64,000 nucleotides of DNA from Mycobacteriales bacterium. GTDB taxonomy: Bacteria; Actinomycetota; Actinomycetes; Mycobacteriales; SCTD01. This document shows positions 5,573-26,014 of the stretch, one piece after another; the first letter of the stretch is position 1, and every line of letters starts with the position of its first letter. The notes under the pieces were generated by a model. It had not been told where the DNA came from and ran no database searches. It saw only the letters and a list, made by a program, of their open reading frames with translations. A program made the translations under genes and the position numbers. Where the stretch lies: the NCBI GenBank assembly GCA_030697205.1, contig JAUYQP010000030.1, positions 1 through 64,000 of the forward strand. The letters run 5' to 3'.

Positions 5573-6207
5573 CCGGCCAGTCGACGTTGCTGCTCGTGCT
5601 CGACCTGCTGGGCGTCTTCGTCTTCGCGCTGTCGGGCGCGCTGGTGGGGGTGCAGCGCCGCCTCGACGTCTTCGGCGTGCTCGTCCTCGGGGTCGTCGCG
5701 GCGCTGGGCGGTGGGGTCGCCCGCGACCTGCTCATCGGGGTGCCGCCCGCCGCGCTGCGCGACGACCGCTACCTGCTGGCCGCTGTCGTCGGGGGCGTGG
5801 TCGTCTTCTTCGGCAGCCGTCACGTCGAGCGGCTGGCCGGCGCGGTGCGGCTGTTCGACGCGGCGGGGCTCGGGCTGTTCGTCGCGTCGGGCACCTCTAA
5901 GGCGCTCGACGCCGGGCTCGGTGCGGTGCCGGCCGTCGCGGTGGGCTGCCTCACCGGCATCGGCGGCGGGGTGGTCCGCGACGTGCTCGTCGCCGACGTG
6001 CCGCTGGTGCTGCGCCGGGAGGTCTACGCCGTGCCCGCCCTGCTCGGTGCCGCGGTGGTCTGCCTCGCCGACGGGACGGGGGCGCCGGACGGGCCCTCGA
6101 CGGCGGTCGCCGCGGTGCTCGTCTTCGCGCTGCGGATGCTCGCGGTGGCCAGGGACTGGCACGCGCCCGTCGCCCGCCGCCACGGCGACTCGCCCCTCCC
6201 CGGCTGA
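5569..6207 (+). CDS. YicG/UPF0126-family membrane protein with two TRIC-like repeats
   Basis: A 212-residue integral membrane protein with about seven helices. The two glycine-rich repeats characteristic of UPF0126 are visible: FGVLVLGVVAALGGGVARDLLIG near residue 40 and VGCLTGIGGGVVRDVLVADVP near residue 130. Members have been proposed to be trimeric ion channels related to TRIC, or small-metabolite transporters; the physiological substrate is not established. The GTG start overlaps the CoA-transferase stop (GTGA), which predicts translational coupling. An inverted-repeat element at 6200-6267 spans its stop codon and could terminate or stabilise the transcript. Confidence 0.88.
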   Translation: MTGQSTLLLVLDLLGVFVFALSGALVGVQRRLDVFGVLVLGVVAALGGGVARDLLIGVPPAALRDDRYLLAAVVGGVVVFFGSRHVERLAGAVRLFDAAGLGLFVASGTSKALDAGLGAVPAVAVGCLTGIGGGVVRDVLVADVPLVLRREVYAVPALLGAAVVCLADGTGAPDGPSTAVAAVLVFALRMLAVARDWHAPVARRHGDSPLPG

Positions 6208-22703: not shown

Positions 22704-23954
22704 ATGAGGGTCATGAGATCGACTCCGCGCGTGCTCGGGATCGTCCTCGCCGGTGGGGAGGGCAAGCGCCTTGCGCCCCTCACCGCCGACCGTGCGAAGC
22801 CGGCGGTGCCCTTCGCGGGCATCTACCGGCTCGTCGACTTCGTGCTGTCCAACCTCGTCAACGCCGACTACCTGCGCATCGTCGTGCTGACGCAGTACAA
22901 GTCGCACTCGCTGGACCGGCACATCACGACGACGTGGCGCATGTCGACGCTGCTCGGCAACTACGTCACGCCGGTGCCGGCACAGCAGCGCCTCGGTCCG
23001 CAGTGGTTCGCCGGCTCCGCCGACGCCATCCACCAGAGCCTCAACCTGGTGTACGACGAGAAGCCCGACCACGTGGTCGTGTTCGGGGCGGACCACGTCT
23101 ACCGCATGGACCCGGCGCAGATGGTGGAGCAGCACATCGCCTCGGGGGCGGGCGTCACCGTCGCCGGGATCCGCGTCCCGCGGTCGGAGGCGTCGGGGTT
23201 CGGGGTCATCCAGACCGGGTCGGACGGGCGCACGATCGAGGCGTTCCTCGAGAAGCCGACCGACCCGCCCGGCCTGCCCGACGACCCCAACACGGTCTAC
23301 GCCTCCATGGGCAACTACGTCTTCACGACCGAGGCGCTGCTCGAGGCCGTGAAGATCGATGCCGACGACGTCGGGTCGGTGCACGACATGGGCGGCAACA
23401 TCATCCCGATGCTCACCTCGAAGGGCATGGCGCAGGTCTACGACTTCAGCGACAACGTCGTGCCGGGGGCGACCGAGCGCGACCGCGGCTACTGGCGCGA
23501 CGTCGGGACGCTCGACTCCTACTACGACGCCCACATGGACCTCGTCTCGATCCACCCGGTGTTCAACCTCTACAACCGGCAGTGGCCGATCCTCACCAGC
23601 GCGCCGTCGCTGCCGCCCGCGAAGTTCGTCTTCGAGGAGGCCGGCCGCACCGGCCACGCCGTTGACTCGCTGGTCAGCCAGGGCGTGATCCTGTCCGGGG
23701 GCACCGTGCGCAAGTCGGTCGTCAGCCCGGGGGTGCGGGTGCACTCCGGTGCCGAGGCCAGCGGCAGCGTCCTGCTGCACAACGTCGACATCGGCCGGGG
23801 CGCCCGGGTGCAGCGGGCCATCCTCGACAAGAACGTCGTCGTCGAGCCGGGCGCCAAGGTCGGCTTCGACCCGGAGCACGACCGGGCCCGAGGCCTGAAG
23901 GTCACCGACTCCGGGGTCGCCGTCGCCGGCAAGGGCCTGTTCATCCCCGTGTGA
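22704..23954 (+). CDS. glgC: Glucose-1-phosphate adenylyltransferase
   Basis: A 416-residue ADP-glucose pyrophosphorylase making ADP-glucose from ATP and glucose-1-phosphate. It has the nucleotidyltransferase signature [27 protein letters not shown] and then [62 protein letters not shown] and [14 protein letters not shown]-type segments follow, and a left-handed beta-helix C-terminal domain ends in [16 protein letters not shown]. It supplies substrate to the divergent GlgM. The ATG at 22704 keeps a short leaderless spacing; the ATG at 22713 (MRSTPRVLG) fits homologue N-termini equally well. A repeat-rich gap follows. Confidence 0.93.
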
Positions 23955-23955
23955 C

Positions 23956-24126
23956 GCCCGTGCCCGTGCCCGTGCCCGTGCCCGCAACCTCTCCGCAAAC
24001 TCCGCCTCCGCCTCCGCCTCCGCCACCGCATCCGCCACCGCATCCGCCACCGCATCCGCCACCGCATCCGCCACCGCATCCGCCACCGCATCCGCCACCG
24101 CATCCGCCACCGCATCCGCCTCCGCC
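23956..24126. repeat. GC-rich hexamer and 12-bp tandem repeats
   Basis: Starting 2 bp after glgC, five GCCCGT-type hexamers occupy 23956-23985. Then come four TCCGCC units (24001-24024), eight exact copies of the 12-mer ACCGCATCCGCC (24025-24120) and one more TCCGCC. Read in frame, the block encodes poly-Pro/His on one strand and an Ala-Asp-Ala-Val repeat on the other; neither looks like a real protein. Exact 12-bp copies suggest slippage-driven expansion. Confidence 0.9.
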
Positions 24127-24127
24127 G

Positions 24128-24346
24128 GATGTGGCGATCACGAAGGGGGCCCGAAACATCAGTGATCGCCACATCTGCCGGGGGCGCTGTCTGGGACGCC
24201 CGCGCCAGGCTGGGTTGTGGCGATCACGGTGAGGGGCGTGAGCGTGCGTGATCGCCACATCTGTCGGCGACGCGGTCTGCCGCGCCAGCCCCAGACGTGG
24301 ATCTGGCGATCATGGTGGGGGCGTGAGCGTGCGTGATCGCCACATC
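24128..24346. repeat. Three palindromes repeated with an 86-bp period
   Basis: Three palindromes start at 24128, 24214 and 24300. Each has arms GATGTGGCGATCA (one or two substitutions in copies 2 and 3) and TGATCGCCACATC, spanning 48, 48 and 47 bp. They are separated by diverged 38-bp spacers, so the period is exactly 86 bp. Copies 2 and 3 share the loop core GTGAGCGTGCG; copy 1 has a different loop. The same unit with the same period recurs at 41897-42030. There is no coding sequence; the block lies between glgC and the DUF3105 gene, both on the plus strand. Confidence 0.85.
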
Positions 24347-24439
24347 GTCGAGGGAGGAAGGGCCGGCGGCAGGCGGGGCGCGGCGGAGTCGGGTGGGGAC
24401 GGCCAGCCTGGGCTTACGGGGGCTTCACGCACCGGTACC

Positions 24440-24445
24440 TACGGT
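24440..24445 (+). promoter_or_regulatory. Leaderless -10 element of the DUF3105 gene
   Basis: TACGGT lies 7 nt before the GTG at 24453, the same geometry as other leaderless starts in this window. It marks that GTG, rather than the internal GTG at 24526, as the natural start and so bears on the frameshift in the leader. Confidence 0.55.
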
Positions 24446-24452
24446 CGGGTCC

Positions 24453-25092
24453 GTGCGCACCACCGCGCTGGCTCTCGCTGGCTCTCGCTGCCCTCGCTGC
24501 CCTCGCTGCCCTCGCCGCCCTGGCCGTGACCGGCTGCTCCGCCGACCAGCCCGACCCCTCCGGCATCGAGGGTCTGCAGCTGGTCGAGGTGACGGAGCAG
24601 TCCTCGACCGAGCGGCACACGACCGAGCGGGGTAGCGACTACCTCACGACGCCGCCGGCTGGCGGCCGGCACTGGCCGGCCAACGCCCCCGACGTCGCGC
24701 CTGGCGTGCTCGGCTGGCTGCGCTGCGGGGTCTACACCGCGCCGGTGCCGTCGGAGTTCGCGGTGCACTCCCAGGAGCACGGGGCGGTCTGGCTGACCTA
24801 CCGTCCCGGCGCGACGCCCGCGGACGTCACCACCTTCACGGGGCTCGCCGCACGCGACCCGGCGTACGTCCTGGTGTCGCCCTTCCCCGGCCAACCGGGG
24901 GCGTGGACCGCCTCGACCTGGGGCGCGCAGCTCACCGTCGAGGCTCCCGACGACCCGCGGCTCGCGGAGTTCGTGCGGGTCTACGCCGGCGGTGGCCAGG
25001 GCGGGGAGAAGGGCGCGGACTGCGTGGGCGGGACGCTGCCGGACGTGGCCGAGGCCGCGCTCGCGGCGGCTGAGCGCAAGGCCGCCGGCTGA
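24453..25092 (+). CDS. DUF3105 lipoprotein with an apparent +1 frameshift in the signal peptide
   Basis: The mature part, from GTG 24526 to 25092, reads VTGCSADQPDPSGIEGLQLVEV ... GGRHWPANAPDVAPGVL ... HSQEHGAVWLTYRPG, a DUF3105 extracytoplasmic domain of unknown function. The leader begins at GTG 24453 (VRTTALALA), but an extra G at 24480/24481 in the repeat GCTCTCGCTG-GCTCTCGCTG throws it into another frame. Removing one base, or one 10-bp copy, gives an ideal Ala/Leu lipoprotein signal ending in the lipobox LAVTGC and continuous with DUF3105. The GTG at 24453 has a leaderless -10. This could be a sequencing error, a pseudogene in the making or slippage-based switching. Translation from 24526 alone would make a protein without a signal. 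Confidence 0.7.
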
Positions 25093-25093
25093 C

Positions 25094-26014
25094 TCAGGCG
25101 GGCAGCGGGTGCCGCAGCCGCGCGGTCAACGAGGAGGGGTCGAGCTCGGCGGCGTCGGTGGTCGCGAGCCAGTCCTGCAGGACGGCGGCGAGCCGACCCG
25201 GCTCGGTGAGGTGCGGGAAGTGGCCGCTCTGCTCGAACACCTCGAGACGCGCGGTCGGCACCGACGCGCAGAGCGCGCGGCCGTGCTCGGCCGGGATGAT
25301 CGCGTCCTTGGCTCCCCACACGACGAGCAGCGGGAGGTCGACGGCGAGGTAGAGCCGGTCGCGGGCGTCGACGCGCTGGCCCCGGACGTCGAGCACGGAG
25401 CGGCAGGTGTGGACGAAGGCCTGCCGGGTCGCCGGGTCGCCGAGCGAGGCGAAGCCGACCAGCGCCTCGGCGACACCGGCAGGGACGGTCACCCCGGCCT
25501 TGGCCAGCAGTCGACCGACCGCCGCGCCGGTCGCGCGCACGGGGGAGGAGGCGATGACGGGCAGCACGAGCTCGGAGCCGGGCAGGGTCGCGGCCCGCAG
25601 GAAGGGCGAGACGTCGGGGCCGAGACCGCCGGCGCACACCAGCGCGAGGCGCTCGACGCGCTCCGGGAACTGGTAGGCGAACTGCATCGCGATGCCGCCG
25701 CCGAGGGAGTGGCCGACCAGGGTGACGCGGTCGTGGCCGAGCGCCGCGAGCAGGTCGCGGATGCCGCAGGCGTGGGCGCCGAGGGAGTAGTCGCCGCGCG
25801 GCTTGGCGGACTCGCCGTGGCCGAGCAGGTCGGGTGCGATGACGCGGTGGGTCCGGCCGAGCACCGCCATCACCTGCTCCCACTGCTTCGCGCGGGAGGC
25901 GATGCCGTGGACGAGCACGACGACCGGGCCGCTGTCGCCGGCGGTGGCGTAGCGCACGAGGTTGCCGTGGACGGGCAGCGCGTCGTAGCGGACGGTCGCA
26001 GCGAGGGAGGTCAT
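25094..26014 (-). CDS. Alpha/beta hydrolase fold protein
   Basis: A 306-residue hydrolase with VVVLVHGIASRAKQWEQVM (oxyanion loop), nucleophile Ser in LVGHSLGGGIAMQFA, an acid in VVWGAKDAIIP and the catalytic His in EQSGHFPHLTEP. It resembles meta-cleavage-product hydrolases and haloperoxidase-like esterases; the substrate is unknown. Its ATG lies 7 bp from a 19-bp palindrome (26022-26040), and a matching half-twin sits at 26105-26121 near the divergent MBL/acyl-CoA dehydrogenase/TetR operon. The hydrolase is therefore probably co-regulated with that operon. It has no signal peptide. Confidence 0.88.
   Translation of the reverse strand: MTSLAATVRYDALPVHGNLVRYATAGDSGPVVVLVHGIASRAKQWEQVMAVLGRTHRVIAPDLLGHGESAKPRGDYSLGAHACGIRDLLAALGHDRVTLVGHSLGGGIAMQFAYQFPERVERLALVCAGGLGPDVSPFLRAATLPGSELVLPVIASSPVRATGAAVGRLLAKAGVTVPAGVAEALVGFASLGDPATRQAFVHTCRSVLDVRGQRVDARDRLYLAVDLPLLVVWGAKDAIIPAEHGRALCASVPTARLEVFEQSGHFPHLTEPGRLAAVLQDWLATTDAAELDPSSLTARLRHPLPA

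What the first reader, a model, noticed from the sequence alone, without database searches (positions are those of the whole stretch)
24453..24530. DUF3105 lipoprotein gene is broken by one base within its repetitive signal peptide
Leaderless -10 TACGGT, start GTG 24453 and a 9-bp-periodic Ala/Leu leader lead to the lipobox LAVTGC only if one G at 24480/24481 (or one copy of a duplicated 10-mer) is removed. As written, the start and the mature domain are in different frames. The mature domain itself is intact. The repeat tract is ideal for slippage, so this may be an on/off switch, a recent mutation or a base-calling error.
Basis: partly seen in the sequence, partly recalled or inferred. Interest (0 to 1): 0.5.

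Follow-up and report, generated by a model that had tools for sequence, protein, structure and literature searches.

The report
Lipoprotein leader broken by repeat slippage
A gene for an exported lipoprotein of unknown function has its start and its body in different reading frames, most likely because a short repeat in its export signal was recently duplicated; this looks like one broken copy, and nothing shows that it is a switch.

Summary
GTG 24453 and the DUF3105 body (lipobox LAVTGC, Cys codon 24535) lie in different frames, and the body's frame has no ATG, GTG or TTG between the stop at 24334 and GTG 24526, inside the lipobox. The start is homologous to those of relatives: in 14 of 14 loci with the same neighbour genes, start, leader and lipobox are in one frame, and in 12 of these 14 a TANNNT box lies 6-7 nt before that start; in the window it is TACGGT with 7 nt. 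The window is the only broken one of 15. The lesion is best described as a perfect 10-bp tandem duplication (run 24466-24490) at the edge of a 9-bp tract (24484-24515). The tract is lineage-specific: exact periodic run 23, against at most 13 in 82 hydrophobic leaders of a genome sample. Slippage of 9-bp units keeps the frame, so the tract is not in itself an on/off switch. The sampled assembly shows little frame noise. Most likely this is a recent loss-of-function allele; an assembly error is second; a selected switch is possible but unsupported, since one genome of the genus and no reads are held. A similar signal-peptide/body split is in print for M. tuberculosis.

The parts
24440..24445 (+). 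-10 box TACGGT of a presumed leaderless promoter
   Evidence: TANNNT 6-7 nt before the start in 12 of 14 syntenic orthologues, TACGGT itself in 6 of 14; background 96 of 22976 ATG/GTG triplets in the sample, both strands
24453..24455 (+). GTG start codon, followed by CGC as in 10 of 14 orthologues; out of frame with the body
24466..24490 (+). perfect period-10 run, 2.5 copies: the likely frame-changing duplication
24484..24515 (+). perfect period-9 run in the Ala/Leu signal-peptide core; frame-neutral unit
   Evidence: with zero mismatches only here in its genome
24520..24537 (+). lipobox L-A-V-T-G-C in the body's frame, Cys codon 24535-24537
24526..25092 (+). open frame of the DUF3105 body; its first ATG/GTG/TTG codon (24526) is the Val codon of the lipobox
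22704..23954 (+). glgC-like nucleotidyltransferase, conserved upstream neighbour
   Evidence: Pfam NTP_transferase and Hexapep_GlmU; synteny, (the name glgC is recalled)
25094..26014 (-). alpha/beta hydrolase, conserved convergent neighbour
   Evidence: Pfam; synteny

Best explanation
The gene encodes a DUF3105 lipoprotein translated from a leaderless mRNA that begins at GTG 24453. Its signal-peptide core expanded by frame-neutral 9-bp units in this lineage. Then one replication slippage between the CGCTG copies 10 bp apart duplicated 10 bp and put the start out of frame with the lipobox and body. Translation from the start now ends after 60 residues without a lipobox, so this allele makes no exported DUF3105 lipoprotein. 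The body is intact because the event is recent. Shown: the frame break, the repeat structure, homology of the start, intact copies in relatives. Inferred: leaderless transcription, slippage as the mechanism, recency, loss of product.
For: Frame break and absence of an in-frame start. 14 of 14 syntenic orthologues have start, leader and lipobox in one frame; 12 of 14 share the TANNNT-N6/7 geometry. Perfect 10-bp duplication with CGCTG at its junctions. Intact body: Pfam 108.7 bits, no stop, GC3 0.946 against a sample mean of 0.949. Little frame noise in the sample: in 111 of 113 same-strand frame changes the upstream frame stops within 40 nt; of the two others one is an ordinary gene end and one looks like another damaged gene.
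Against: One genome only; no reads, no sister strain. The codon score of the body is low for its genome (8th percentile of 370 segments), which may mean longer decay or simply an unusual gene. A one-base insertion instead of a 10-bp duplication gives the same frame and is not excluded. At least one other gene in the sample seems broken too (L067), so the assembly or strain is not free of such lesions.
Confidence: 0.57

Rival explanations
1. Assembly or base-calling error: the living strain has an intact leader and the extra bases arose in sequencing or assembly of a repetitive tract.
For: The lesion lies in the most repetitive leader of the sample and beside the densest cluster of tandem arrays of 464 kb. 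PMC3711429 (passages) expected singleton frameshifts validated by BLASTp to be sequencing errors rather than genuine indels (complete genomes up to 2013).
Against: The tract of about 60 nt is shorter than an ordinary short read (general knowledge; the sequencing method of this genome is unknown); a perfect 10-bp duplication is not a homopolymer-type error; few other frame breaks in the sample.
Confidence: 0.25
2. Reversible phase variation: the 10-bp copy number is gained and lost at useful frequency and switches the lipoprotein on and off.
For: Repeat in the signal-peptide region of a gene for an exported protein, as in Neisseria opa; promoter box and body both intact.
Against: The main unit is 9 bp and frame-neutral; the 10-bp unit has only 2.5 copies; 0 of 14 orthologues have such a tract or a shifted frame; no second frame state has been seen.
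Confidence: 0.08
3. The gene is expressed as written, through an unannotated start in the body's frame (CTG 24478), re-initiation at GTG 24526, or ribosomal frameshifting.
For: The body's frame is open back to 24337, and the coding signal begins in that frame at 24472.
Against: A leader begun at CTG 24478 would have no positive charge before its core, whereas all 14 orthologous leaders have Arg there. GTG 24526 lies inside the lipobox, so its product has no signal. No classical slippery heptamer was seen by eye (no search was run for one).
Confidence: 0.1

Closest known systems
Rv0192A/Rv0192 of Mycobacterium tuberculosis and the fused Mb0198 of M. bovis (PMC1501019, passages read)
   Same: An actinobacterial signal-peptide frame is separated from its body by an indel in a short repeat; another genome has both in one frame.
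   Different: There the repeat is a mononucleotide tract, (G)4 against (G)5, and two genomes show the two states. Here it is a 10-bp duplication beside a 9-bp tract, and only one state is known.
Neisseria opa coding repeats (PMC3960869, passages read)
   Same: Repeat tract in the 5' gene region that encodes the leader peptide; slipped-strand mispairing changes the frame.
   Different: opa uses a 5-bp unit (CTCTT), so most copy-number steps change the frame, and the paper gives about 1e-3 switches per cell per generation. Here the tract unit is 9 bp, one 10-bp step breaks the frame, and no switching has been seen.
Frameshift indels and 'scars' of Mycobacterium tuberculosis (PMC8339072, abstract and passages read)
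   Same: Actinobacterial genes silenced by frameshifting indels and in principle restored by a second one.
   Different: There: 74 unique scars in 48 genes among 5977 isolates. Here: one genome, no restored or alternative allele known.
Singleton frameshifted genes, GeneTack classification (PMC3711429, passages read)
   Same: One broken member among relatives that are intact.
   Different: A tandem repeat lies at the break, a feature that paper requires for phase variation; its further requirement of a cluster of five or more frameshifted members is not met here.

Membership tests
DUF3105 (PF11303) | Match over the curated cut-off | tested here: met
   108.7 bits against 25
Bacterial lipoprotein | Signal peptide and lipobox in frame with a start codon | tested here: not met
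   The lipobox LAVTGC is present but its frame has no ATG/GTG/TTG before it; met in 14 of 14 syntenic orthologues
Leaderless TANNNT gene | -10 box TANNNT 6-7 nt before the start | tested here: met
   TACGGT-N7-GTG
Leaderless TANNNT gene | Transcript begins at the start codon | not testable with these tools
   No expression data
Slipped-strand phase-variable gene | Repeat whose unit is not a multiple of three at the break | tested here: inconclusive
   The 10-bp unit has only 2.5 copies; the long tract has a 9-bp unit
Slipped-strand phase-variable gene | Both frame states seen in related strains or in one culture | not testable with these tools
   One genome held for the genus; no reads
Slipped-strand phase-variable gene | Tract kept at the same place in relatives | tested here: not met
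   Longest exact periodic run 11 or less in 14 of 14 orthologous leaders, 23 in the window

The most novel reading that the evidence does not exclude
A signal-peptide tandem tract in this actinobacterium works as a contingency locus: 9-bp steps tune leader length in frame, while rarer 10-bp steps turn a leaderless lipoprotein gene off and on.
Probability: 0.07. Interest if true: 0.5.

Novelty: new member of a known kind. Interest (0 to 1): 0.18.

Why it matters
As it stands it matters mainly for annotation. A mechanical ORF caller starts this protein at GTG 24526, inside the lipobox, which hides both the lipoprotein nature and the frame break. Comparing -10 box, start and lipobox across syntenic relatives settles such cases. 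If strains proved to differ at this tract, it would be a signal-peptide length-and-frame switch in an actinobacterium.

Tried and rejected
One candidate frame break (L049, 937) proved to be an ordinary protease-like gene with C-terminal repeats whose stop lies at a normal gene junction. The other (L067, about 6136) looks like a real frame change, perhaps with a stop inside the same gene (5594-5596; two genes 6 nt apart would also fit); homology was not tested.

Function of DUF3105: the AlphaFold2 model from 4 sequences was poor (mean pLDDT 44.1), so no fold search was made. The only solved-structure match up to E 1 had E 0.13. No paper in the library holds the word DUF3105.

RNA element in 23900-24600: no Rfam match at gathering score.

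How special are Leu-Ala 9-bp arrays? In the own genome the shorter pattern with up to 3 mismatches had 3 matches (two overlapping ones in this tract) while the reversed control pattern had 6, so loose matches mean nothing; only the zero-mismatch matches are confined to this tract. In the order, a longer pattern (41 nt, up to 2 mismatches) matched in 11 of 298 genomes and the reversed control in 12 of 298 (my count of the rows), so such arrays are rare and not enriched; the window's own tract does not meet that longer pattern. I read one array in each of the 11; the reading of L102 was spoiled because its locus is short. L101 looks like an in-frame lipoprotein leader, so such leaders can be tolerated; most others are not clearly leaders.

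REP-like element: a RAYT-type transposase (PF01797) was sought and not found in the genome.

Literature: seven searches. The last of them gave nothing of use. A signal-peptide frame split by an indel is in print for mycobacteria (PMC1501019); I saw no switch of exactly this 9/10-bp form in those listings, which does not prove absence.

The first script of the frame scan failed on a missing file and was repeated.

Full report
Observation. The window lies on contig C30 of a 4.02-Mb, 59-contig genome. The sequence shows TACGGT 24440-24445, GTG 24453 and an Ala/Leu-rich stretch up to a lipobox whose Cys codon is at 24535. The distance from GTG to the Cys codon is 82 nt, not a multiple of three. 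The GTG frame reads VRTTALALAGSRCPRC... and stops after 60 residues; the frame of lipobox and body reads ...LALAALAALAALAALAVTGCS. In the body's frame the nearest upstream stop is TGA 24334, and between it and GTG 24526 there is no ATG, GTG or TTG, only CTG 24478 and CTG 24520. GTG 24526 is the Val codon of LAVTGC, so a protein begun there has no signal peptide. The body is intact and belongs to DUF3105 (PF11303, 108.7 bits).

Is GTG 24453 really the start? The protein was sought in the genus (only the window's own genome is held), the family (24 genomes, matches in 24) and a draw from the order (61 genomes, matches in 48). From these, 54 loci were read upstream of the match. L037, L040 and the loci were left out (L009 is the same contig as L017), as were matches listed without a locus. 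Three rows (L073, L074, L084) were misread because their loci are cut at a contig end; none shows the neighbour genes. Fifteen of the 54, the window included, have the glgC-like gene and/or the alpha/beta hydrolase beside the gene (tblastn at 45% identity or more; with about 1.5 kb of flank this is a lower bound). In all 14 others a start codon, a hydrophobic leader and a lipobox lie in one frame; the window is the only one of 15 without. In 12 of 14 a TANNNT box lies 6 or 7 nt before that start, and in 6 of 14 it is TACGGT exactly, as in the window; in 10 of 14 the second codon is CGC, as in the window. Where several in-frame starts existed I chose the one with this box, which favours the count; in L016 and L023 no such start has it. 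In the sample 96 of 22976 ATG/GTG triplets on both strands, true starts included, have such a box. The geometry agrees with the -10 motif mapped in M. tuberculosis, where many transcripts are leaderless (PMC3898074, passages). The start assignment is therefore firm, and the frame break is real as sequence.

Anatomy of the lesion. A period-10 run of 25 nt (24466-24490, 2.5 copies, CGCTG at the junctions) overlaps a period-9 run of 32 nt (24484-24515). Cys positions in the 14 orthologous leaders are 14 to 23, so the window's leader is longer than all of them. Those relatives lack the tract: longest exact periodic run at most 11, against 23 here. Within a 464-kb sample of the same genome the longest such run in 82 hydrophobic leaders is 13, and the 9-bp array pattern occurs with zero mismatches only here in the genome (with 3 mismatches allowed the reversed control had more matches, 6 against 3). 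The simplest history is growth of the leader by 9-bp units, which keeps the frame, followed by one 10-bp tandem duplication, which breaks it. A one-base insertion is formally equivalent for the frame. This is inference from the present sequence.

Assembly error? A codon-based frame model trained on 203 long ORFs was run over the window and 20 stretches of 20 kb. It found 113 same-strand frame changes; in 111 the upstream frame stops within 40 nt, as at normal gene junctions. Of the other two, L049 is an ordinary gene end, and L067 looks like a gene with a frame change and perhaps an internal stop. Of 375 coding segments, 5 lack an in-frame start near the onset of the coding signal, the window gene being one; two of the other four (L062, L063) look like genes with unusual or misplaced starts and two look like model noise, judged by eye. 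The sampled assembly is thus not generally noisy, but a local error in this tract remains possible. The mature part has GC3 0.946 (sample mean 0.949) but a codon score at the 8th percentile of 370 segments, which neither proves nor excludes decay.

Switch? In Neisseria opa, 5-bp coding repeats in the leader-peptide region change the frame (PMC3960869, passages). The present tract differs in the key point: its unit is 9 bp. Only the 10-bp step switches, and it is present in 2.5 copies. None of 14 syntenic relatives shows the tract or a shifted frame. By the criteria of PMC3711429 (passages) this is a singleton break with a tandem repeat beside it, which that paper would not class as phase variation without further frameshifted members. 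In actinobacteria, a signal-peptide ORF (Rv0192A) split from its body in M. tuberculosis and fused with it in M. bovis is described in PMC1501019 (passages), and reversible frameshift silencing in PMC8339072 (abstract and passages). So neither the kind of lesion nor its possible reversal is new.

Setting. The 571 bp from 23956 to 24526 hold the densest group of tandem arrays in the 464-kb sample: a 6-bp, a 12-bp (10.3 copies), an 86-bp and the 9-bp array. The 86-bp array contains a palindromic element found as 10 exact copies in this genome, this one included, and in none of 23 other family genomes, most of them fragmented. The region is evidently prone to repeat growth, which fits slippage as the cause.

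Verdict. The reading as a broken, probably recently mutated, gene is favoured; error is second; a selected switch is unsupported. The genome holds two further DUF3105 genes (C15 and C34), so loss of this one may be tolerated; that is inference.

Noticed in passing
window 23956-24526: Densest cluster of tandem arrays in 464 kb of this genome: (GCCCGT)4.8, (CCGCATCCGCCA)10.3, an 86-bp array of 2.2 copies, and the 9-bp leader array.
   Followed up: partly
window 24217-24258 and copies on C13, C15, C49, C59: Palindromic REP-like element GTGGCGATCACG...CGTGATCGCCAC: 10 exact copies in the own genome, three pairs of them 75-86 bp apart, none in 23 other family genomes. No Y1_Tnp (PF01797) transposase was found in the genome, so what spreads it is unknown.
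   Followed up: partly
L067 5173-6449 (G000:C49 about 145173-146449): Gene-like stretch with a TAG in its coding signal (5594-5596) and a frame change near 6136: perhaps a second broken gene in the sample.
   Followed up: partly
L062 16254 and L063 9317: Two coding segments without ATG/GTG/TTG near the onset of the coding signal, one with a Cys-rich N-terminus (CYRHADRETYVRCTRCERPICPEC) that resembles rhomboid-type proteins (label recalled, no call).
   Followed up: no
L049 1-1077 (C30, just past the window; begins before 64001): Subtilisin-like protease (label by eye) with SSWGAS/STWAAS repeats at its C-terminus.
   Followed up: no
L101 1026-1607 (-): In another family of the order, a likely lipoprotein with an in-frame (LAA)n leader made of the same kind of 9-bp repeat, overlapping the end of a gene that looks like a sigma factor (label by eye).
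   Followed up: partly
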